Assembly: GCF_003268675.1 (NCBI RefSeq) | Contig: NZ_CP029378.1 | Span: forward strand, 3,472,001 to 3,536,000 | Direction of reading: 5' to 3' | Length of the DNA stretch: 64,000 bases | Source of the DNA: Streptomyces bacillaris | GTDB lineage: Bacteria; Actinomycetota; Actinomycetes; Streptomycetales; Streptomycetaceae | Shown: one piece after another, positions 1,489 to 59,881 of the stretch | Numbering within the stretch: position 1 is the stretch's first letter | How the letters are laid out: each line of letters starts with the position of its first letter | Translations under genes and position numbers: made by a program | The notes under the pieces: generated by a model | Databases searched by the model: none | Seen by the model: the letters and a program-made list of their open reading frames with translations, nothing else | Told to the model about the DNA's origin: nothing

Positions 1489-3897
1489 TCACCGCGCCCC
1501 CGCCTCCACTCCTTCCGACACCGCCGCGAGCTGCGTCGTCGCCAGTTCGCGGTAGAGGTCGTCCCCGGCCATCAGCTCCTCGTGCGTGCCCGCCGTGCGG
1601 ACGCGGCCGTCCTCCAGGACCACGATGCGGTCGGCGTGGCGGACGGTGGAGAGGCGGTGGGCGATGACCAACACCGTGGACCGTGCGGCCAGTTCGAGGA
1701 TGACATCGCGCAGTGCCTGTTCGTTGACCGCGTCGAGCTGCGAGGTCACCTCGTCGAGGAGGAGCAGGCGCGGGCGGCGCAGCAGGGCGCGGGCGATGGC
1801 GATGCGCTGGCGTTCGCCGCCTGAGAGGGTGACGCCCCGGTGGCCGACCGCCGTGTCCAGGCCCTCGGGCAGGCGGGCGACCAGGGCGTCCAGACGGGTG
1901 CGGGTGACCGCCTCCGTCAGCCGCTCCTCGGGGGCGTCGGGGGCCGCGAAGAGCAGGTTCTCGCGGAGGGTGCCCGCCAGGACCGGGGCGTCCTGCTCCA
2001 CGTACGCGAGCGAGGCGCGCAGCTCCGCGAGGGGCCAGTCCCTGATGTCCCGGCCGTCCAGCGCGATGGTCCCGGTGTCGTGGTCGTAGAACCGTTCCAG
2101 CAGGCTGAACACCGTCGACTTGCCCGCCCCCGACGGGCCCACCAGCGCCACCATCCCGCCGGCCGGGACCTCGAACGTGACGCCCTTGTGGGCCGGGGCG
2201 CGCTCGTCCCCGTACCCGAAGGTGACCTCCTGGAAGGTGACCTGGAGGGGGGTGGTGGTGCCGCCTGTCTTCGCGCGGCCCGTGGCCCCCGCCGGTTCGC
2301 CCGGCAGCGACTCCACCTCGTCGATCCTCCGTACGGCGGCGAGGCCGCTCTGCAACCCCGTCCACCCCTCCACCAGGCCGCCGATCGGGCCCATCAGGTA
2401 GAAGAGGTAGAGCAGGAACGCGATCAGCGAGGAGATCTCCAGGGAGCCCGACGCCACCCTCGCCCCGCCCACACCCAGCACGGCCAGGAAGGCGAGCTGG
2501 ATCGACATCATCATCGTGACGTCGGAGACCGACGACCACTTCGCCACCGACACACCCCGGTCGTGCGCGTGCCGGGCCGCCCGCGCGACCGCCGCCGTCT
2601 CCCGCTCCTCCGCGCCGCTCGCCTTCACCGTACGGAACGCCTGGAGCACCCGGTCCAGGGCCGCGCCCATCGCTCCCACGGACTCCTGCGCACGGAGCTG
2701 CGCTCGCTGAATACGCGGCATGAGCAAGGCGGTTACGGCTCCGATGCCGACGATCACCACCAGCGTCACGCCCAGCAGCGTGAGGTCCATGTACGCCATG
2801 AACGCGACCGTCCCCAGCAGCATCAGCACGCTGTTGAACGACTCGACCAGGCCGCTGGAGAGGACCGTCCGGAGGAGGGTCGTGTCACTGGTCACGCGGG
2901 ACTGGAGGTCGCCAGGGGTCAGGCGGTCCACCGCCGGGACCTTCAACCGCATGATCCGGCCCACCAGTTGGTCGCGCGCACGGAGGACGACGCCCTCTCC
3001 CGTACGGGCCATGAGGTAACGCCCGTACGCGGAGAGGCACGCACCCGCGAGGACGAGCGCGGTGAGCGCGATGAGCGGGGCCACGGGCGATCGGTCGGCG
3101 GCGAACGCGTCGACCGCGTACTTCGCCATCAGCGGCATCGCCAGCCCGGCCGCCGACCCGGCGAGCGAGAGCAGGCCCGCCCGGATCAGGACGCCCCGGT
3201 GCGGGCGGACCCGGGCGAGGAGCAGGCGGAGGGGGGAGGGGCCGGACGTGCCATCCGTGCCGGTGGCGCCGGTCGCGTCGGCCATACGGGTCGCGCCGGG
3301 GTCGCTCGCTTCGGAGAGTGGTGCGCTGGCCTCAGGCGCCCCAGACCCTCCCGGCCGCTCAGCTGCCCCAGGCCCTTCCGGCCCCCCAGGCGCCCCAGGC
3401 CCTCCCGTCCGCTCCTCAGGGCTCCTGTCCGCCCCCGCCCCGCCCCCGTCGTCGTCCCCGCCACCGCGCTCACCCGGAACCCCCTCGCGTACCGTCACCA
3501 CCATCAGAGGACGCAGATCGGCCGCTTCCGCCTGTTCGCCGACCGTGCGGCCCCCCGCCTCCACCCAAGCATGCGGCGAGAACGGCGGCGCCGTCCGGAC
3601 CCCGGCGCACCAGTCGGGCCACGCTCCCGACATCCGGCACGCCAGCGCGATGGCCACCGAGCGGGGCAGGCAGCCGTAACGGCCCGCGCAGCGGCGGCTG
3701 GTGGCGGTGACGGCCTCGTACATCTCCAGCGTCTCGTCGTACGTCGCCGGGCGGGCGCCCCTGCTGCAGCGGGTCAACACCCGGCGCAGGCGGCCCGGTT
3801 TGAAGCGGGCGAACACGAACGCGGCGGCGATCGCGGCCCGCAGCCGTACGCCTCCCGGGCCCGCACCCCGGCGGGGCATGGTCATCTCGGTGGTCAT
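1489..3897 (-). CDS. Lasso peptide B2 protease fused to ABC exporter (B2-D fusion)
   Basis: This 802-residue protein joins two lasso functions. Residues 1-135 are the transglutaminase-like leader protease (B2), with the expected cysteine C76 in RYGCLPRS and histidine H109 in PHAWVE. Residues about 141-220 are a Gly/Pro/Ala-rich linker. Residues about 221-530 are a six-helix ABC transmembrane domain. Residues about 550-790 are the ATPase: Walker A GPSGAGKST (587-595), signature LSGGE (691-695), Walker B LLLLDE (711-716) and H746. The ATG at 3897 overlaps the stop of the B1 gene by 4 bases (ATGA), implying coupled translation. B2 and exporter are usually separate genes in lasso clusters, so the fusion could channel leader cleavage into export. 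There is no stop codon in the linker; an in-frame ATG at linker residue 205 could also permit a separate exporter. Confidence 0.9.
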   Translation of the reverse strand: MTTEMTMPRRGAGPGGVRLRAAIAAAFVFARFKPGRLRRVLTRCSRGARPATYDETLEMYEAVTATSRRCAGRYGCLPRSVAIALACRMSGAWPDWCAGVRTAPPFSPHAWVEAGGRTVGEQAEAADLRPLMVVTVREGVPGERGGGDDDGGGAGADRSPEERTGGPGAPGGPEGPGAAERPGGSGAPEASAPLSEASDPGATRMADATGATGTDGTSGPSPLRLLLARVRPHRGVLIRAGLLSLAGSAAGLAMPLMAKYAVDAFAADRSPVAPLIALTALVLAGACLSAYGRYLMARTGEGVVLRARDQLVGRIMRLKVPAVDRLTPGDLQSRVTSDTTLLRTVLSSGLVESFNSVLMLLGTVAFMAYMDLTLLGVTLVVIVGIGAVTALLMPRIQRAQLRAQESVGAMGAALDRVLQAFRTVKASGAEERETAAVARAARHAHDRGVSVAKWSSVSDVTMMMSIQLAFLAVLGVGGARVASGSLEISSLIAFLLYLFYLMGPIGGLVEGWTGLQSGLAAVRRIDEVESLPGEPAGATGRAKTGGTTTPLQVTFQEVTFGYGDERAPAHKGVTFEVPAGGMVALVGPSGAGKSTVFSLLERFYDHDTGTIALDGRDIRDWPLAELRASLAYVEQDAPVLAGTLRENLLFAAPDAPEERLTEAVTRTRLDALVARLPEGLDTAVGHRGVTLSGGERQRIAIARALLRRPRLLLLDEVTSQLDAVNEQALRDVILELAARSTVLVIAHRLSTVRHADRIVVLEDGRVRTAGTHEELMAGDDLYRELATTQLAAVSEGVEAGAR

Positions 3898-4145
3898 GGG
3901 CGCAGGATCTTCGCCTCGACGAGCTGACGGGTCAGCTCGGCCACGTCCGACTCCGCCTCGGCCCGCTCGACGTCGAACTCCGCGACGATCCGGTCGACGG
4001 CCGCCTCGGAGGTCTGCCCGGCGGCGAGGGCCTCGACCACGATCACGCTGGTGTCGTTCAACTGCCAGTAGCTGCCGTCCTTTTCGTCGAGCAGGACTCC
4101 GCCGTACTCGGTCGTCGTGACGGCGATGCCTTTTCTGAGCTTCAC
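3894..4145 (-). CDS. Lasso peptide B1 protein (PqqD-like RiPP recognition element)
   Basis: This is an 83-residue PqqD-like protein. Features typical of the stand-alone RRE of lasso clusters are the DEKDGSYWQLNDTS core, a helix with VDRIVAEFDV and a C-terminal helix ending LVEAKILRP. By family knowledge it binds the leader peptide (YxxP motif of the precursor) and delivers it to the B2 protease. The start is GTG at 4145, which overlaps the stop of the cyclase gene (GTGA), and its own stop overlaps the ATG of the B2-exporter fusion (ATGA). The whole cassette is therefore a tightly coupled operon. Confidence 0.9.
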   Translation of the reverse strand: MKLRKGIAVTTTEYGGVLLDEKDGSYWQLNDTSVIVVEALAAGQTSEAAVDRIVAEFDVERAEAESDVAELTRQLVEAKILRP

Positions 4146-6103
4146 TGGAGTGCCTCGCTGGTGGTGGTCGTGGGGGTCAACTGGGGTGTGGGCCAGGCGT
4201 TTTCCACTGTGCGGAGCCAGGTCTCCCCGGCCACGGTGGAGCTGATGGAGTGCTCGACCAGGACCGGCGAGAAGGGTTCGGCCGCCAGGCGGAGCAGGTG
4301 GCGGGCGTCCACCAGCCCGTGTTCGGCCAGGCGGGAGCCGGTCCACAAGTCGGCCAGTTCGTGGGCGTGTTCGCGGAGTCCCTGGTGTTCGTCGGAGGAC
4401 ATGTGGTCCTTCGTCGTACGGGCCAGCAGCGCGTCCGGCACCACCCCGCGCATCGCCTCGACCAGCAGCGGCTTGTAGCGCCAGGGGCTGATCCGCTCCG
4501 GGAGGCGTACGGCGAGGGTGGCCTCCAGGACCCGGTCGTCGTAGAAGGGGGCCGCGACCGGCAGCCCGATCGTCATGCCGATGTCCTCCATCGCCTGGAA
4601 GTGCCGCGCCCCCATCCGTACCGCGTCGATGTCCACATGCCGCCCCCGCCACCGGTCGATCGGCTCGGCCCGCTCGGCGGCGGTCCGGAACTCCTCGGTG
4701 ATCAGGGTGCGAGCGTGGTCCGTGAACCAGGGGCGCAGGGACTGGCGGACGCCCCAGGAGAGCAGCGGGGTGCGGGTGACCGGCTGGGGTTCGGTGGTGA
4801 CCGCGCCCGCCAGCCACTGCGGGAAGGCGGAGCGGTTCAGCAGGGCCTTGAGGGTGGGGAGCAGGGGCCAGCCGAGCTGGTGGCGCAGGCCGCTGAGGTG
4901 GTTCCAGGCGGTGAGGGGGTTGCCGTGGAAGAGGTCCTGGTAGGCGTGGGGCAGGCCGAGGAAGAGTTCGTCGCCGCCGTAGCCGGTGAGGTGGTAGCGC
5001 GATCCGGTGGCGTGGGCGCGGCTCAGGAGCAGGTGCGCGCGGGCGCGGCCGGGGGCGACGGGGAGCGGTTCGTCGTTCAGTTCGGCCGAGGTGGCGGCCA
5101 AGTCCGCGTAGAAGTACGGGGCTTGGTCGGCCGGGATGATGTGGTGGGCCAGGGCGTCCGTGGGGCCGTGTGCCGCCTCCACCGCCCTTCTCGCCCACAT
5201 CTCGTCCTCGCTGTAGCGGTCCCGGGCGGCCACGGTGAGCAGCGACAGCTCCGCGCGGCCGGTCGCGCGGGCGGCGAACGTGAGGGCCGTGGAGTCCAGG
5301 CCGCCGGAGAGTTCGCAGCTGATCCGGTCCAGGCCGCCGACATGGGCCCGTACGGAAGCGGCGACGGCCTCCCCGACCCTGCGGGCGCCCTCCGCCAGGG
5401 AGAGTTCCGGCGGCGGGGGCTCCCACCAGCGGTACTCGCGAGGGCCGGGGGCGGCGGCCGTGCCCGGTGCTGCGACGGGCAGGGCCAGTCCGTACCCGGC
5501 CCCGGTCTCGTGCACGCCCCGCCACAGGGCGCGTCGGCTCAGGGGGTGCGGCAGGAAGTCGAGCATGCGCAGGGCCAGCGCGCCGTCGTCCAGGGGGGCG
5601 CCGGTCAGGTGGGCCAGGACGGCCGGGCGGTCCGAGGCGATGGTCCCGGCCTGCGGGTGCCGGGCGTGGTAGATCCGGCGCAGCCCGGAGGCGGTGCCCC
5701 GGATCCAGGTCTCGCCGGAGAGGTGCGCGATGACGTGGTGGAGGCCGGGGAGCCGGGCGAGGCGCCGTTCCAGCGCGGCCCGGTCGCGGGCGCCCTCCAG
5801 GAGACCGGCGAGCACGGCCTCGGGGACGCGGTCGGGGCCGATGAGCACGAGGGCGTCGTCGCCCCGGCGGAGGTGGCTGACCTTGCGGAACAGGGGGCGC
5901 GCGAGGACCCAGGGGCGGCCGGAGGGGTGCGGGACGGTCACGACGTCACCGGCCCCGGTCACCGTAGGGGCGGACGCGGCCCCGGTCATCGTCGGGGCGG
6001 TCCCGGCCCCGGTCGCCTCCGGTGCGGGAAGCTGCCCGGCCACCGTGTGGCCCGCCACGCTGTCCGGCAGGACGACGAAGTAGTCACGCAGCAGGCCGGG
6101 CAT
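4142..6103 (-). CDS. Lasso peptide cyclase (asparagine-synthetase homologue, C protein)
   Basis: This 653-residue protein matches lasso cyclases, which adenylate the ring Asp/Glu side chain and close the isopeptide bond to the core N-terminus. The PPi-loop SGGLDS is at residues 266-271 and GYGGDELF at 374-381. The N-terminal glutaminase-like half lacks the Cys2 needed for glutamine hydrolysis, as expected for lasso cyclases. ATG at 6103 is preferred over GTG at 6109 because the ribosome-binding site (GAAAGG) lies immediately before the GTG and 5-6 bases before the ATG. Residues 32-52 hold a degenerate repeat (TAPTMTGA, SAPTVTGA) matched by a roughly 24-base DNA repeat, probably a slippage insertion. 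The gene lies 50 bases after the precursor stop. Confidence 0.93.
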   Translation of the reverse strand: MPGLLRDYFVVLPDSVAGHTVAGQLPAPEATGAGTAPTMTGAASAPTVTGAGDVVTVPHPSGRPWVLARPLFRKVSHLRRGDDALVLIGPDRVPEAVLAGLLEGARDRAALERRLARLPGLHHVIAHLSGETWIRGTASGLRRIYHARHPQAGTIASDRPAVLAHLTGAPLDDGALALRMLDFLPHPLSRRALWRGVHETGAGYGLALPVAAPGTAAAPGPREYRWWEPPPPELSLAEGARRVGEAVAASVRAHVGGLDRISCELSGGLDSTALTFAARATGRAELSLLTVAARDRYSEDEMWARRAVEAAHGPTDALAHHIIPADQAPYFYADLAATSAELNDEPLPVAPGRARAHLLLSRAHATGSRYHLTGYGGDELFLGLPHAYQDLFHGNPLTAWNHLSGLRHQLGWPLLPTLKALLNRSAFPQWLAGAVTTEPQPVTRTPLLSWGVRQSLRPWFTDHARTLITEEFRTAAERAEPIDRWRGRHVDIDAVRMGARHFQAMEDIGMTIGLPVAAPFYDDRVLEATLAVRLPERISPWRYKPLLVEAMRGVVPDALLARTTKDHMSSDEHQGLREHAHELADLWTGSRLAEHGLVDARHLLRLAAEPFSPVLVEHSISSTVAGETWLRTVENAWPTPQLTPTTTTSEALQ

Positions 6104-6153
6104 CTTCACCTTTCGGAAGTTCTCACACCGTGCGCGGGGAACCGGTCGGCGGT

Positions 6154-6285
6154 TCAGATGATGCGCCGGACCCAGTACTCCTTGTACGAGCCGTAGAAGT
6201 AACCGGCGGTCTTCTTCGAAAAGTCGCCCTGCTTGAACAGCGACGGCTTCATGTAGGCCTTCTTGGCCTTCTCCTGCTGCTTCAT
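6154..6285 (-). CDS. Lasso peptide precursor (A), 27-residue leader and 16-residue core
   Basis: The 43-residue peptide has the class hallmarks. The leader contains YMKP (the YxxP motif read by the RRE) and ends KKTA, with threonine in the penultimate position. The predicted core is GYFYGSYKEYWVRRII: Gly1 and Glu9 would close a 9-residue macrolactam, leaving a 7-residue tail with Trp11 and two arginines; there is no cysteine, so this is a class II lasso peptide. The ATG at 6285 has a strong ribosome-binding site (AAGGGAAGG) just upstream, and an upstream in-frame extension lacks one. From memory the core resembles SRO15-2005 of S. roseosporus but is not identical; this needs a database check. 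It is the first gene of the operon A-C-B1-B2/D. Confidence 0.93.
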   Translation of the reverse strand: MKQQEKAKKAYMKPSLFKQGDFSKKTAGYFYGSYKEYWVRRII

Positions 6286-6315
6286 GACACCTTCCCTTCT
6301 GTGCGGTTGACGACC

Positions 6316-6342
6316 GTTATGCCCAACAGCTGTTCGCATAAC
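6316..6342. promoter_or_regulatory. Inverted repeat in the lasso operon leader region
   Basis: Arms GTTATGC (6316-6322) and GCATAAC (6336-6342) flank the perfect 10-base palindrome AACAGCTGTT (6325-6334). The element lies 31-57 bases upstream of the precursor start in an unusually AT-rich patch. It could be an operator, part of the promoter or a 5' UTR stem-loop. Confidence 0.5.
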
Positions 6343-10539: not shown

Positions 10540-10818
10540 TCAGCAGCCGCCGGCCACGGCGGGGATGATCGAGATACCGGCGCCGTCCGGCGTGGCCGCG
10601 TCCAGGCCGCCCTCGAAGCGCACGTCGTCGTCGTTGACGTACACGTTCACGAAGCGGCGCAGCTTGCCCCGGTCGTCCAGGACGCGGGCGGCGATGCCCG
10701 GGTGGTCCTTCTCCAGGGACTCGATGACCTCGGCGAGCGTGGCGCCCTCGGCCGGGACCTCGGCCTGGCCGCCGGTGTAGGTGCGGAGGATGGTGGGGAT
10801 GCGGACCTTGACGCTCAT
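10540..10818 (-). CDS. ThiS/MoaD-family sulfur carrier protein ending GGC
   Basis: The 92-residue ubiquitin-fold protein has the family pattern (FVNVYVNDDDVRF, then GISIIPAVAGG). Carriers of this type accept sulfur as a C-terminal Gly-Gly thiocarboxylate. Here a cysteine follows the di-glycine (AGGC), so it must be trimmed, for example by a JAMM/Mec+-type protease, before activation, as known for QbsE and CysO-type carriers. No such protease or activating enzyme is in the window. It is the second gene of an operon 53 bases behind the threonine-synthase-like enzyme, beneath a SAM riboswitch, which points to methionine/homocysteine sulfur delivery rather than molybdopterin or thiamin. The ATG at 10818 has AAAGG 9 bases upstream. 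Confidence 0.9.
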   Translation of the reverse strand: MSVKVRIPTILRTYTGGQAEVPAEGATLAEVIESLEKDHPGIAARVLDDRGKLRRFVNVYVNDDDVRFEGGLDAATPDGAGISIIPAVAGGC

Positions 10819-10871
10819 GACGGAGGCCTTTCTGACTGCTGCGGTCGGGGCGATCGGGGCGATCGGGATGA

Positions 10872-12167
10872 TCAGGCGGCGGCGAGGCCCGCGGCGCGGA
10901 ACGCGTCCAGGCTCGGCTTGATGGTGGCCGTCGCCTGCGAGGTCGCGGAGACCGCGTCGAGCGTCTTGAGCCCGTCACCGGTGTTCAGGACGACGGTGGT
11001 GAGCGCCGGGTCGATCACCCCGGCCTCGATCAGCTTCTTCGTCACGCCGACCGTCACACCGCCCGCCGTCTCACCGAAGATGCCCTCGGTGCGCGCCAGC
11101 AGCTTGATCGCGTCGACGACCTGCTCGTCGTTGACGTCCTCCACCGCGCCGCCCGTGCGGCGGGCGATGTCCAGGACGTACGGGCCGTCCGCCGGGTTGC
11201 CGATGGCCAGGGACTTGGCGATGGTGTTCGGCTTCTGGGGCCGTACGACGTCGTGCCCGGCCTTGAAGGCGGCGGAGACCGGGGAGCAGCCCTCGGCCTG
11301 GGCGCCGAAGATCTTGTACGGCCGGTCCTCGACCAGGCCGAGCCTGATCAGCTCCTGGAACCCCTTGTCGATCTTCGTCAGCTGGGAGCCGGACGCGATC
11401 GGGATGACGATCTGGTCGGGCAGCCGCCAGCCGAGCTGCTCGCAGATCTCGAACGCCAGGGTCTTGGAGCCCTCGCCGTAGTACGGCCGCAGGTTGACGT
11501 TGACGAAGCCCCAGCCCTCGCCGAGCGGGTCCCCGATCAGCTCGGAGCAGAAGCGGTTCACGTCGTCGTAGTTGCCCTCGATGCCGACCAGCTCACCGCC
11601 GTACACCGCGGCCATGACGACCTTGCCCTGCTCCAGGTCGTGCGGGATGAAGACGCAGGAGCGCAGTCCGGCGCGGGCGGCGGCGGCGCCGACGGCACCG
11701 GCCAGGTTGCCCGTGGAGGAGCAGGAGAGGGTGGTGAAACCGAAGGCTCGGGCGGCCTCGACGGCGATCGCGACGACGCGGTCCTTGAAGGAGTGCGTCG
11801 GGTTGCCGGAGTCGTCCTTGACGTACAGACCGCCGGTGACGCCCAGCTCGCGGGCGAGGTTGTCGGCCTTGACCAGCTTGGTGAAGCCGGGGTTCAGGTT
11901 GGGCTTGTCGGCCACGTCGGCGGGGACCGGCAGCAGTGGGGCGTAGCGCCAGATGTTGTCGGGACCGGCCTCGATGCGCTTGCGCAGCGCCTCCGGGTCA
12001 CCGGCCGGCAGGTCGTACGCCACTTCCAGCGGCCCGAAACAGGACGCACAGGCGAACAGGGGGCCGAGGTCGAAACGCTCGCCGCACTCGCGGCAGGAAA
12101 GCGCCACGGCGGGACCGAGGTCCACGGAAGCGGTGGTGGCATTACCTGCGATGGTCTGAACAGCCAT
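10872..12167 (-). CDS. Threonine-synthase-like PLP enzyme, probable O-phosphohomoserine-dependent homocysteine synthase
   Basis: The 431-residue fold-type II PLP protein would be annotated threonine synthase (thrC). An N-terminal CREC/CASC zinc-ribbon-like segment is followed by the PLP lysine in SFKDR (about residue 129) and the phosphate-cradle GNLAGA motif. Threonine synthase acts on O-phosphohomoserine. Two context facts argue that this copy makes homocysteine from that substrate using sulfur from the adjacent carrier protein: the SAM riboswitch in its leader and the co-transcribed ThiS/MoaD-like protein. Streptomyces normally has a separate hom-thrC-thrB locus elsewhere. I recall a recent report of such a MetM/MetO route in Streptomyces but could not check it. 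Start ATG 12167. Confidence 0.88.
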   Translation of the reverse strand: MAVQTIAGNATTASVDLGPAVALSCRECGERFDLGPLFACASCFGPLEVAYDLPAGDPEALRKRIEAGPDNIWRYAPLLPVPADVADKPNLNPGFTKLVKADNLARELGVTGGLYVKDDSGNPTHSFKDRVVAIAVEAARAFGFTTLSCSSTGNLAGAVGAAAARAGLRSCVFIPHDLEQGKVVMAAVYGGELVGIEGNYDDVNRFCSELIGDPLGEGWGFVNVNLRPYYGEGSKTLAFEICEQLGWRLPDQIVIPIASGSQLTKIDKGFQELIRLGLVEDRPYKIFGAQAEGCSPVSAAFKAGHDVVRPQKPNTIAKSLAIGNPADGPYVLDIARRTGGAVEDVNDEQVVDAIKLLARTEGIFGETAGGVTVGVTKKLIEAGVIDPALTTVVLNTGDGLKTLDAVSATSQATATIKPSLDAFRAAGLAAA

Positions 12168-12187
12168 GATGGCGGAGGCCCTTTCTC

Positions 12188-12311
12188 CTCATCTTCCTCG
12201 CAGCGCATTTCGCCGCAAGACGGAATTGGCACCTTCCCCACCGTGACCTCGCGGTCGGCAGGAGGGTTGCCGGGACTTCAACGGGCCGTTCCCTCAGTCC
12301 CTCTGGATGAG
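12188..12311 (-). promoter_or_regulatory. SAM riboswitch (SAM-I/SAM-IV clan) in the leader of the thrC-like operon
   Basis: On the minus strand the S-box core is clear: AGAGGGACTGAGGGA, GGCCCGTTGAAGTCCC and GGCAACC (12265-12305), then GGTGCCAATTCC (12223-12234). Helix P1 can form between CTCATC (12306-12311) and GATGAG (12188-12193). An extra hairpin candidate lies between the GGTGCCAATTCC segment and the 3' P1 strand, which favours the SAM-IV layout. The 3' P1 strand merges into the ribosome-binding purine tract (GAGGAGAAAGGG) about 20 bases before the ATG, so SAM would block translation initiation. I see no strong intrinsic terminator. Confidence 0.88.
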
Positions 12312-12439
12312 CTCTGTGGCACCGGATCTTCGATCCAGGCGTTTGTGTGACGACGGACCCCGACATGCGACGGTCGTCCGCGTTGTTCAAGACTGTAACC
12401 GAAGGACGGGACGGTTGAGATAGTCGTCCGAACGGCGAG

Positions 12440-13417
12440 ATGGATCACACACAGGGAGTTCAGACCGTGCTCGAAGAGGTGGAACGCTGGCTGACCAGGC
12501 GGTCCTGGTCGTCCGCCGACCGCCCGCTGGACCGGCTCCTCGACGCCCGGACCGCCGAACCGCACCGCACCTCGGTGAGTGTGGTGCTGCCCGCGCTGAA
12601 CGAGGAGGCCACGGTCGGTGCGATCGTGGCGACGATCCGGCGGGAGCTGATGGAGAAGGTCCGGCTGGTGGACGAGCTGGTGGTGATCGACTCCGGTTCG
12701 ACCGACGCCACCGCCGCCGTCGCCCGGGAGGCGGGCGCCCGGGTGGTCCACCGGGACGCGATCCTGCCCCGGATACCGGCCGTGCCGGGCAAGGGCGAGG
12801 TCCTCTGGCGGTCGCTCCTGGTGACCAGCGGGGAGATCGTCTGCTTCGTCGACGCGGACCTCAAGGACTTCTCGGCGGACTTCGTCTCGGGGACGGTCGG
12901 GCCGCTGCTGACCGATCCGGCGGTGCACTTCGTCAAGGCGATGTACGACCGTCCGCTCGGCGACACCGCAGGTCAGGGCGGTCGCGTCACCGAGCTGGTG
13001 GCCCGCCCACTGCTCAATCTGCACTGGCCGCAGCTGGCCGGGTTCGTGCAGCCGCTGGGCGGCGAGTACGCGGTGCGGCGCTCGCTGCTGGAGCGGCTGC
13101 CCTTCCCGGTCGGTTACGGAGTGGAGCTGGGGCTCCTGGTCGACGCGCTGCACACCGTGGGCCTCGACGCGCTGGGCCAGGTCGACGTGGGGGTGCGGCG
13201 CCACCGCCACCAGGACGGGCAGGCGCTGGGCCGGATGGCTGCGGCGATCTACCGCACGGCCCAGCTCCGGCTCTCCCGGGGCCATCTGGTGCGGCCCGCG
13301 CTGACGCAGTTCGAGCGGGGCGCGGAGGGGTTCGTACCGCGCACCCATGCGGTGGACACGGAGGAGCGGCCGCCGATGCGGGAGATCGCGGAGTACGCGG
13401 AGCGGTGGGCGGCGTGA
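12440..13417 (+). CDS. gpgS: Glucosyl-3-phosphoglycerate synthase
   Basis: The 325-residue GT-A fold glycosyltransferase has VVLPALNEEATV (residues about 48-59), VVIDSGSTD, the metal-binding DAD in CFVDADLKDF and the GGEYAVRRSLL acceptor region typical of GpgS. It transfers glucose from an NDP-glucose to 3-phosphoglycerate, the first step to glucosylglycerate, a compatible solute. Two starts are possible: ATG 12440, with little ribosome-binding signal, and GTG 12467, preceded by GGGAG 8 bases upstream; the latter may be real. The gene is divergent from the SAM-controlled operon and precedes otsA, consistent with osmolyte metabolism. The product call rests on family resemblance. Confidence 0.85.
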   Translation: MDHTQGVQTVLEEVERWLTRRSWSSADRPLDRLLDARTAEPHRTSVSVVLPALNEEATVGAIVATIRRELMEKVRLVDELVVIDSGSTDATAAVAREAGARVVHRDAILPRIPAVPGKGEVLWRSLLVTSGEIVCFVDADLKDFSADFVSGTVGPLLTDPAVHFVKAMYDRPLGDTAGQGGRVTELVARPLLNLHWPQLAGFVQPLGGEYAVRRSLLERLPFPVGYGVELGLLVDALHTVGLDALGQVDVGVRRHRHQDGQALGRMAAAIYRTAQLRLSRGHLVRPALTQFERGAEGFVPRTHAVDTEERPPMREIAEYAERWAA

Positions 13418-13566
13418 GGCGCGCGCGGGGCTTCGGCAGCCCTGAGGCGTGCGCGGGCGAGGCGGCCGGCGTGAGGCGTGCGCGGGCGCGGTGGGCGGCG
13501 CGGTGCCGGTGACCGATCCTCCGGACGCGCGTTTGGCGGCTTCCCTCACGGGCTAGGTTCCGCTAC

Positions 13567-14955
13567 ATGGTCACCGAGCATGCCGAAGCCACCGCCCAGG
13601 TCCTCGTCGCGTCCAACCGCGGCCCCATCACGTACACGCTCGGCGAGGACGGAACGCTCGACGCCAAGCGCGGCGGCGGGGGTCTCGTCTCCGGGCTGAG
13701 CGCCGTCGACGACAAGCTGTGGGTCTGTGCGGCCCTCGGGGACGGCGACCGCGAGGCGGTGCGACGCGGGGTCGGTGAGCCGGGCGTACGGATGCTGGAC
13801 ATCGACGCCGAGGTCCACGCCGACGCGTACAACGGCATCGCCAACTCCGTGCTGTGGTTCGTCCACCACCTGCTGTACCAGACCCCCGTGGAGCCGGTCT
13901 TCGACGCGGAGTTCCGGCGGCAGTGGGCCTCCTACGAGACGTACAACCGGGCCTTCGCCCAGGCCCTCGCGGAGGAGGCGGGGGAAGGCGCCTCGGTCCT
14001 CGTCCAGGACTACCACCTGGCCCTGGTCCCCGGGATGCTCCGCGAGCTGCGCCCGGATCTGCGGATCGGCCACTTCTCGCACACCCCGTGGGCGCCGGTG
14101 GACTACTTCCGGCTGCTGCCCGACGACATCGGTGAGCAGTTGCTGCGGGGCATCCTCGGCGCGGACCGGGCCGCGTTCCTGACCCGGCGGTGGGCGGACG
14201 CGTTCATCGGCTGCTGTACGGAGATCCTCGGCGGGACGGGCCGGACCCGGATCGGGGTGCACGGGCTGGGGGCGGACGCGGACTTCCTGCGCCGACGCTC
14301 GCGCGAGGCGGACGTGGACGAGCGGATGGCGGCGCTGCGGGAGCAGGTGGGCGAGAACCGGAAGACGATCGTGCGGGTGGACCGCACGGAGCTGTCCAAG
14401 AACATCGTGCGCGGCCTGCACGCCTACCGGGCCCTGCTGGAGGCCCACCCGGAGTGGCGCGAACACGTGGTCCATGTGGCCTTCGCCTACCCCTCCCGCC
14501 AGGACCTCGCGGTCTACCGGGACTACACGGCGGCGGTGCAGTCGCTGGCCACGGAGATCAACGGGGCTTACGGGACCGAGAGTTGGACGCCTGTCGTCCT
14601 CCACGTGAAGGACGACTTCGCCCGCTCGCTCGCCGCGTACCGGCTGGCGGACGTGGCCCTGGTCAACCCGATCCGCGACGGCATGAACCTGGTCGCCAAG
14701 GAGGTCCCCGTCGTCTCCGACCACGGCTGCGCGCTGGTGCTGTCACGGGAGGCGGGGGCGTACGAGGAACTGGGCGAGGACGCGATCGTGGTGAACCCGT
14801 ACGACGTGACGGGCACGGCGGAGGCGCTCCACGAGGCCCTGTCGATGGGCGCCGAGGAGCGGACGGGCCGCACGAAGCGGCTGGCGGAGGCGGCGACGGC
14901 GCTCCCGCCGCAGCGGTGGTTCCTGGATCAGCTGGAGGCGCTGCGGCAGGAGTGA
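13567..14955 (+). CDS. otsA: Trehalose-6-phosphate synthase
   Basis: The 462-residue GT20 protein contains ASNRGPITY near the N-terminus, a GGGGLVSGL loop, LVQDYHLALVPGML and GHFSHTPWAP (acceptor and donor site motifs), RVDRTELSKNIVRGL, and LVNPIRDGMNLVAKE near the C-terminus. It joins UDP- or GDP-glucose with glucose 6-phosphate. The motif order and length match OtsA. The gene is convergent with otsB, which dephosphorylates the product. The start ATG is followed directly by VTEHAEATAQVLVASNRGP; upstream sequence shows no better start. Confidence 0.95.
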   Translation: MVTEHAEATAQVLVASNRGPITYTLGEDGTLDAKRGGGGLVSGLSAVDDKLWVCAALGDGDREAVRRGVGEPGVRMLDIDAEVHADAYNGIANSVLWFVHHLLYQTPVEPVFDAEFRRQWASYETYNRAFAQALAEEAGEGASVLVQDYHLALVPGMLRELRPDLRIGHFSHTPWAPVDYFRLLPDDIGEQLLRGILGADRAAFLTRRWADAFIGCCTEILGGTGRTRIGVHGLGADADFLRRRSREADVDERMAALREQVGENRKTIVRVDRTELSKNIVRGLHAYRALLEAHPEWREHVVHVAFAYPSRQDLAVYRDYTAAVQSLATEINGAYGTESWTPVVLHVKDDFARSLAAYRLADVALVNPIRDGMNLVAKEVPVVSDHGCALVLSREAGAYEELGEDAIVVNPYDVTGTAEALHEALSMGAEERTGRTKRLAEAATALPPQRWFLDQLEALRQE

Positions 14956-15036
14956 GGGGAGCCGCTTACGGCGCTCCCGGCACTTCCGGTACGACTACGG
15001 CTCAGAGGCGGCCGGCCAGGTCTGTGCAAGTACGAC

Positions 15037-15888
15037 TCAGAGGCGGTCGGCCAGCGCTGCCAGGAACTCCACCACGGCGGCCGGCCCCGGCACCAACAGG
15101 TCGGCGCGCTCGGCCAGTTCGGGCACCTCGGCGCTGCCGCTGCACACCAGCAGCCCCGGGATTCCTTCCGTGCCCGCGCCGCGCAGCTTCTCCACGGTGG
15201 CGAAGGCGGCGAGGTCCCCGAGGTCGTCGCCCGCGTACAGCACGGAGGTGGCGCCCACCTCCCGTACGTACTCCGCGAGCGCGACGCCCTTGTCCATGCC
15301 CGGCGGGCGCAACTCCAGCACCTGGCGGCCCGGTTCGAGGATCAGCCCGTGGCGGGCGGCCAGCTCGCCGAGAGGGCCGCGCAGGGTCTCGAAGGCCGCC
15401 TGCGGGTCGTCGGCGCGGCGGGTGTGGACGGCGACGGCCTGGCCCTTCTCCTCGATCCAGGTGCCGTGCCAGGCGCCGAACTCGTGCAGTACGCCGGGGA
15501 GTTCGGCCCGCGCCTCGGCCACGCCGGCGTGCGGGGCGGGGGCGTTCACGGTGCCGGTGGCGGCGTCCCAGCGCTCGGCGCCGTAGTGGCCGAGGACGAC
15601 GAGGTGGTCCAGACCGGTGACGCCCGCGAAGCCGCCGTACCGTACGGCCACGCCCGCGGGGCGGCCGGTGATCACGGCGATCGAGGCGACCTTCGGGGCG
15701 AGCGCGGCGAGCGCCTCGGCGGCGCCGGGGTGGGCGCGGGCCTGCTCGGGGTCGGGGACGATGTCGGCGAGCGTGCCGTCGAAGTCGAGAGCGACGACCG
15801 CGCGGTCGGGCCGCTGGAGGATGGCCTCCAGGCCCTCCCGGCCGGCCGGGGTGGTCGGGGTCGGCAGATGTACGGAGTGGCTGCCCAT
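15037..15888 (-). CDS. otsB: Trehalose-6-phosphate phosphatase
   Basis: The 283-residue HAD phosphatase has the catalytic DFDGTLADIVPDP (nucleophile and acid/base aspartates), VITGRPAG (motif II), a family lysine region MDKGVALAEYV and YAGDDLGDLAAF (motif IV). It hydrolyses trehalose 6-phosphate to trehalose. ATG 15888 is chosen because the protein then begins MGSHSVHLPTPTTPAGREG; upstream in-frame sequence belongs to an intergenic repeat. A short near-copy of its last seven codons, with its own stop, lies just beyond it at 15002-15021, suggesting a small tandem duplication at the 3' end. It faces otsA. Confidence 0.94.
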   Translation of the reverse strand: MGSHSVHLPTPTTPAGREGLEAILQRPDRAVVALDFDGTLADIVPDPEQARAHPGAAEALAALAPKVASIAVITGRPAGVAVRYGGFAGVTGLDHLVVLGHYGAERWDAATGTVNAPAPHAGVAEARAELPGVLHEFGAWHGTWIEEKGQAVAVHTRRADDPQAAFETLRGPLGELAARHGLILEPGRQVLELRPPGMDKGVALAEYVREVGATSVLYAGDDLGDLAAFATVEKLRGAGTEGIPGLLVCSGSAEVPELAERADLLVPGPAAVVEFLAALADRL

Positions 15889-15912
15889 GGGGTGAGCGTA
15901 GCAATCCGCCCC

Positions 15913-16070
15913 CTCCGGCGATTGAGGAGCGGAGGTTCGGGGGCAGCGCCCTGGACCTACCGGGGCTCCGCCCCGCACCCCGCTCCTCAATCGCCGGAGA
16001 GGCTTGAATTGCGCCCCGCAGCCGAAAGCCGACGGGGCAAAATCCAGCCCCTCCGGCGTTTGAGGAGCGG
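15913..16070. repeat. Intergenic inverted/direct repeat family
   Basis: A 20-base unit (CTCCGGCGATTGAGGAGCGG) at 15913-15932 has a perfect inverted copy at 15980-15999 and a direct copy with one change at 16051-16070. Units of this kind recur between genes in many Streptomyces genomes. The inverted pair can fold as a hairpin between otsB and the DUF3263 gene. Confidence 0.85.
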
Positions 16071-59704: not shown

Positions 59705-59881
59705 GTGCCGGAGCAGTGTAACCAACCGGGCACCCGCGCCGTCCACGGTTTCTCTGTGCCCCGGACTACTGACAGATCGGAAAACGCCAGGTAGCGTCAC
59801 GGCAGGTTCATCTCATTGGACCAGACCACTCCCTACTCGGATCGTCCGGCACGTTCCTGCCGGTGGAGGAGAAGATTCAGC

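What the first reader, a model, noticed from the sequence alone, without database searches (positions are those of the whole stretch)
10540..12311. SAM-riboswitch operon pairing a threonine-synthase homologue with a GGC-ending sulfur carrier
A threonine synthase would not be expected under SAM control. O-phosphohomoserine is its substrate, and with a thiocarboxylate sulfur donor the analogous beta/gamma-replacement would give homocysteine. The set (riboswitch, enzyme, carrier) strongly suggests a methionine route using phosphohomoserine. I recall a similar route reported for Streptomyces (MetM/MetO) but cannot confirm it here.
Basis: partly seen in the sequence, partly recalled or inferred. 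Interest (0 to 1): 0.75.

Follow-up and report, generated by a model that had tools for sequence, protein, structure and literature searches.

The report
MetM/MetO methionine operon in a Streptomyces
The window holds a SAM-riboswitch-controlled operon that almost certainly makes homocysteine (for methionine) from a threonine-pathway intermediate with sulfur delivered by a small carrier protein; the route was published for Streptomyces in 2024, so the locus is real and correctly read but not new.

Summary
A SAM-I riboswitch (12313-12186, minus strand) lies 18 nt before a 431-aa threonine-synthase homologue (12167-10872), followed by a 92-aa ThiS/MoaD/CysO-type carrier ending GGC (10818-10540). 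A true hom-thrC-thrB cluster lies elsewhere in the genome, and the window's enzyme falls in a separate clade from ThrC (100/100 support) with its own active-site motifs. The riboswitch is the only SAM-I riboswitch in the genome. The system matches the published MetM/MetO route of Streptomyces albulus (Hasebe et al. 2024; not held, read through PMC12172450), so it is already known. Additions from this work: metM is in 199/199 sampled genomes of the genus but metX in only 54/199; this strain has both. The C-terminal Cys is not the defining feature: among 79 carriers 52 end in bare GG, 24 in GGC. The riboswitch-metM-metO set and parts of its groEL/otsAB neighbourhood reach other classes of the phylum, including a genome whose length equals that of Acidimicrobium ferrooxidans, an organism listed in 2018 as lacking any known homocysteine pathway. 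No activity was measured here.

The parts
12186..12313 (-). SAM-I riboswitch aptamer (5' end at 12313, 3' end at 12186)
   Evidence: RF00162, 80.3 bits, E 2.7e-17; only RF00162 match in the genome
12168..12193 (-). Proposed expression platform: 3' strand of helix P1 (GAUGAG) running into the ribosome-binding stretch AGAAAGGG, up to the start codon; only 18 nt lie between aptamer and AUG
   Evidence: Sequence; GAUGAGGAGAAAGGGCCUC conserved in most of 80 loci; folding with P1 formed or blocked. Inferred, not measured
10872..12167 (-). metM: PLP fold-type-II enzyme, threonine-synthase homologue, predicted thiocarboxylate-dependent homocysteine synthase
   Evidence: separate clade from ThrC; motif differences; predicted fold matches threonine synthases, Z 37-45
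10540..10818 (-). metO: sulfur carrier protein of the CysO/MoaD type, ends AVAGGC
   Evidence: ThiS family E 3.5e-17; closest solved chains 4n6e_B and 3dwg_C, E 2.6e-29 and 8.1e-28; 52% identical to the genome's own CysO-like carrier

Best explanation
This is the MetM/MetO route to methionine. MetO's C-terminal Gly-Gly is activated by a shared E1-like MoeZ and turned into a thiocarboxylate; in this strain the extra C-terminal Cys must first be trimmed, most likely by the one JAMM protease of the cysO-cysM locus. MetM binds O-phosphohomoserine drawn from the threonine pathway, eliminates phosphate through PLP as threonine synthase does, and then takes sulfur from MetO-COSH at the gamma carbon to give homocysteine instead of adding water at the beta carbon. 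The SAM riboswitch shuts the operon off when SAM is plentiful, probably by masking the ribosome-binding site when P1 forms. Shown here: gene content, order, riboswitch, separate ThrC, distinct clade, candidate E1 and protease. Published by others for S. albulus: MetM as a homocysteine synthase, the carrier gene metO, and the SAM riboswitch (via PMC12172450). From memory of the primary paper: the thiocarboxylate form of MetO is the sulfur donor. Inferred: trimming of the Cys tail, MoeZ as activator, and the translational mode of the switch.
For: Riboswitch, enzyme and carrier in one unit. Only SAM-I riboswitch of the genome. Separate lysA-hom-thrC-thrB cluster. MetM and ThrC form separate clades, 100/100 support each. 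MetM motifs SFKDRVV, STGNLA, NVNxRPYYxEGSKT, P(I/V/M)ASG and ETAGG replace ThrC's SFKDRGM, STGNTS, NSVNPxR(I/L)EGQKT, PVGNAG and E(P/M)ASAAS. 26 of 27 MetM-bearing genomes also hold a separate ThrC. Universal in the genus sample, 199/199, while metX is in 54/199. Carrier beside metM in 79/80 and riboswitch in 80/80 loci, and the riboswitch above gathering in 12 of 19 loci from the phylum sample. One MoeZ-type ThiF-rhodanese protein and one strong JAMM protein near cysO-cysM. Published MetM description.
Against: No activity measured here, and the primary paper could not be read. The genome also carries metY-metX and a cystathionine gamma-synthase-like gene, so methionine may be made without MetM. 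A cyanobacterial relative (51.6% identical to S. albulus MetM) makes threonine and deaminates it in vitro and was not shown to make homocysteine. At least one genome has MetM but no other recognisable ThrC.
Confidence: 0.92

Rival explanations
1. The enzyme is a second threonine synthase (or bifunctional threonine synthase/threonine deaminase) that happens to be under SAM control, with the carrier serving cysteine or other thiolation.
For: TIGR00260 thrC cut-off is passed; the Microcystis relative has ThrC and deaminase activity; G464 has MetM and no other ThrC detected at E 1e-30.
Against: A full hom-thrC-thrB cluster exists. SAM-I aptamers are known as OFF switches for methionine and SAM genes, which would be a poor control for threonine (general knowledge). 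MetM differs from ThrC at conserved active-site motifs. The carrier is genetically tied to MetM rather than to CysM, which has its own CysO.
Confidence: 0.05
2. MetM makes homocysteine, but in this strain it is a backup or condition-specific route, the main flux being metX-metY (O-acetylhomoserine). This is compatible with the best explanation and concerns flux only.
For: metY (823 bits, PRK07812) and metX lie next to each other at 7.46 Mb.
Against: metM is in 199/199 genomes and metX in 54/199. In the single-contig genomes listed, many metX hits lie towards a contig end, which suggests metX is the accessory route. MetM is the SAM-controlled one.
Confidence: 0.25
3. The ThrC-like protein uses free sulfide, and the carrier next to it serves CysM or another acceptor.
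For: Fold-type-II sulfhydrylases generally accept sulfide in vitro (general knowledge); in f15 genomes MetM relatives were found with no recognisable carrier beside them.
Against: Near-universal metM-metO adjacency in Streptomyces (79/80) and in most sampled loci of other classes; CysM has its own cysO and JAMM gene.
Confidence: 0.05

Closest known systems
MetM/MetO homocysteine synthesis of Streptomyces albulus (Hasebe et al. 2024, AEM 90:e01247-24, cited in PMC12172450)
   Same: ThrC-like enzyme, sulfur carrier gene metO, upstream SAM riboswitch, genus Streptomyces
   Different: No difference found beyond strain-level ones: this carrier ends GGC and this genome also has metYX. The tail of S. 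albulus MetO was not seen here.
CysO/CysM/Mec cysteine synthesis (Mycobacterium tuberculosis; O-phosphoserine plus CysO, PMC12910592)
   Same: Fold-type-II PLP enzyme plus a MoaD/CysO-type carrier, phosphate leaving group; MetO is most like CysO-type structures 4n6e_B and 3dwg_C
   Different: Substrate O-phosphoserine and product cysteine; this genome has its own separate cysO-cysM-JAMM locus
Protein-thiocarboxylate methionine synthesis of Wolinella succinogenes (Krishnamoorthy and Begley 2011, cited in PMC5764234)
   Same: Carrier-protein thiocarboxylate as sulfur donor for homocysteine
   Different: As recalled, it uses a fold-type-I MetY and O-acetylhomoserine, not a ThrC homologue and O-phosphohomoserine
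Threonine synthase ThrC
   Same: Fold (Z 37-45 to ThrC structures), presumed substrate O-phosphohomoserine
   Different: Separate clade, altered active-site motifs, SAM riboswitch, carrier partner

Membership tests
MetM/MetO route | ThrC-like enzyme distinct from the genome's ThrC | tested here: met
   Separate hom-thrC-thrB; separate clade 100/100
MetM/MetO route | Sulfur carrier gene directly downstream with C-terminal Gly-Gly | tested here: met
   ORF 10818-10540, ThiS family, AVAGGC; GG kept in all 79 carriers read
MetM/MetO route | SAM riboswitch upstream | tested here: met
   RF00162 80.3 bits
MetM/MetO route | Same gene as S. albulus MetM | tested here: inconclusive
   S. albulus sequence not fetched; each sampled genome of the genus has one such gene (two hits, possibly pieces of one, in G168), so orthology is inferred
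MetM/MetO route | Converts O-phosphohomoserine plus carrier thiocarboxylate to homocysteine | not testable with these tools
   Needs enzyme assay
Threonine synthase (ThrC) | Groups with ThrC and carries its active-site motifs | tested here: not met
   Separate clades; motif table
Threonine synthase (ThrC) | Passes the TIGR00260 cut-off | tested here: met
   276 bits against 167; the model does not separate MetM from ThrC
CysO/CysM system | CysM-type enzyme and Mec protease linked to the carrier | tested here: not met
   Those genes lie together at 5.11 Mb with another carrier ending GGMR
SAM-I riboswitch | Matches the covariance model above gathering | tested here: met
   80.3 against 44.4 bits

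The most novel reading that the evidence does not exclude
In some lineages of the phylum the MetM-type enzyme serves both threonine and homocysteine synthesis, the carrier and the SAM switch deciding the product; G464, with riboswitch, MetM and carrier but no other ThrC detected, would be such a case.
Probability: 0.1. Interest if true: 0.55.

Novelty: already known. Interest (0 to 1): 0.3.

Why it matters
It confirms that a gene commonly annotated as threonine synthase is, in all 199 sampled genomes of this genus, the likely homocysteine synthase, so pathway annotation of these organisms is misleading. It also supplies a candidate route for an organism documented as having no known homocysteine pathway: a genome of exactly the length of Acidimicrobium ferrooxidans carries riboswitch, MetM, carrier and a separate ThrC.

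Tried and rejected
The primary paper (PMC11497804) is not held. The single genome-contig scan returned only Streptomyces-type loci; breadth came from the genome search instead. A first attempt to read ORFs from loci ignored strand and was discarded. A strict regular expression for the aptamer found 60 of 80; the other 20 were all found by Rfam, so the misses were mine. No plasmid match to the locus. I considered that GGC is diagnostic and rejected it: bare GG is commoner. L008, another ThrC-like protein of this genome, aligns poorly, sits on a very long branch and is not part of the story.

Full report
What is there. On the minus strand, in order of transcription: a SAM-I riboswitch at 12313-12186 (RF00162, 80.3 bits, E 2.7e-17), an 18-nt gap, a 431-aa ORF at 12167-10872 and a 92-aa ORF at 10818-10540. 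The long ORF is a PLP enzyme of the tryptophan-synthase-beta/threonine-synthase fold (Pfam PALP, NCBIfam thrC) with an N-terminal CxxC...CxxC pair seen in the alignment. The short ORF is a ThiS-family carrier ending AVAGGC.

The genome. The window lies in a single-contig genome of 7.89 Mb. (i) A separate threonine locus exists: ORFs that read as lysA, hom, thrC, thrB and rho in one run at 2.32 Mb, the ThrC scoring 320 bits with TIGR00260. (ii) metY (823 bits with PRK07812) and metX (438 bits with TIGR01392) are neighbours at 7.46 Mb, so a canonical O-acetylhomoserine route is also present. A CGS/CGL-type gene and a cystathionine beta-synthase are present too. (iii) Carriers: four ThiS-family matches above the cut-off and one weak one, among them a CysO-like one ending GGMR directly before a cysM, with the only strong JAMM-protease match about 4 kb away, and one MoeZ-type ThiF-rhodanese protein. 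The riboswitch of the window is the only RF00162 match in the genome.

Identity of the enzyme. In a tree of 42 proteins from this phylum, 22 MetM-type and 16 ThrC sequences form two separate groups, each with 100/100 support (the tree also holds four long-branched outliers, whose own placement is unsure). Where ThrC has SFKDRGM, STGNTS, NSVNPxR(I/L)EGQKT, PVGNAG and E(P/M)ASAAS, MetM has SFKDRVV, STGNLA, NVNxRPYYxEGSKT, P(I/V/M)ASG and ETAGG, nearly without exception. The predicted MetM structure (mean pLDDT 79.7) matches threonine synthases best (2c2b Z 45.4, 2.4 A over 407 residues). So the scaffold is that of threonine synthase, with a changed active site. In 26 of 27 genomes tested that have MetM there is also a separate ThrC.

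Distribution. metM is in 199 of 199 sampled genomes of the genus, metX in 54 of 199. In 80 Streptomyces-type loci the riboswitch is present in 80 (60 by a strict core pattern, 20 by Rfam) and the carrier in 79; the missing one is probably L125, whose contig ends 76 bases after metM. The carriers end in bare GG in 52, GGC in 24 and GG plus two or three residues in 3. Across the phylum 143 of 396 genomes have a MetM-type match at E 1e-60; in 19 loci taken from the best of these, 12 have the riboswitch above gathering and most have the carrier. Of the seven without a riboswitch, two (f15, L095 and L096) also lacked a recognisable carrier nearby. The neighbourhood is partly conserved: gpgS, a cold-shock gene, otsA and groEL lie near the pair in 76 to 80 of 80 Streptomyces-type loci, and groEL, otsA and otsB flank it in L208, a genome of another class.

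A gap filled. L208 comes from G277, a single contig of 2,158,157 bases, exactly the published length of Acidimicrobium ferrooxidans (PMC3035218); the identification rests on that length. It has the riboswitch (60 bits), MetM (55% identical), a carrier ending VVPAVAGG and a separate ThrC. Price et al. 2018 name this organism as one with neither the traditional, the DUF39 nor the thiocarboxylate pathway of homocysteine synthesis (PMC5764234). The MetM/MetO set is a ready candidate for that gap.

Regulation. The 18 nt between aptamer and start codon leave no room for an intrinsic terminator, so control of translation is likelier. The sequence GAUGAGGAGAAAGGGCCUC, joining P1's 3' strand to the ribosome-binding stretch, is strongly conserved. 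When P1 is forced, the GGG of that stretch is on average 0.34 unpaired; when P1 is blocked, 0.78; the second exceeds the first in 73 of 80 loci. This fits SAM-off control but is a computed, phylogenetically non-independent result.

Comparison with what is known. PMC12172450 reports that Hasebe et al. [quoted passage not shown] albulus carrier gene metO and to the SAM riboswitch upstream of S. albulus metM. The primary paper is not held; that MetO thiocarboxylate donates the sulfur to O-phosphohomoserine is from memory. The window's operon has the three genomic features. It is therefore a known system in its known genus. What it works like and what it belongs to agree; only the enzyme activity itself is untested here. 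The Microcystis relative, with ThrC and deaminase activity in vitro, is a caution against naming every homologue MetM.

Noticed in passing
window 1489-6339, minus strand: A lasso-peptide cluster: candidate precursor (ORF 6339-6154, ending ...KKTAGYFYGSYKEYWVRRII, Thr at -2 and Gly1/Glu9 as a possible ring), an albusnodin/ikarugamycin-family macrolactam cyclase (4142-6109, 220 bits, below that model's cut-off), a PqqD-like chaperone (96 bits, above cut-off) and an ORF that looks like a B2-type protease fused to an ABC transporter (1489-3897).
   Followed up: partly
G464, locus L195 (also L080, L198): Genome, 99% complete, with riboswitch, MetM and carrier but no other protein passing TIGR00260 at E 1e-30; its best other PALP protein is IlvA (430 bits). 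A possible bifunctional MetM/ThrC or a missing contig.
   Followed up: partly
L095, L096, L196 (f15 genomes): MetM-type enzymes with no riboswitch (L095, L096) and no carrier found beside them; they may use an unlinked carrier or free sulfide, or do something else.
   Followed up: no
window 59820-59877, plus strand: msiK RNA element (RF01747, 50 bits).
   Followed up: no
window 12440-15990: gpgS (glucosyl-3-phosphoglycerate synthase, 436 bits) followed by ORFs that read as otsA and otsB, conserved next to metM in Streptomyces; otsA and otsB also flank it in G464 and in L208.
   Followed up: partly
L205 and genus hits: metX is patchy (54/199) and in several single-contig genomes sits near a contig end; an accessory second homocysteine route.
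   Followed up: partly
Carriers of L079, L085, L086, L088, L089, L094: Carrier tails outside Streptomyces also vary beyond bare GG: GGA, GGR, GGC, GGCC; no correlation with JAMM presence was tested.
   Followed up: no
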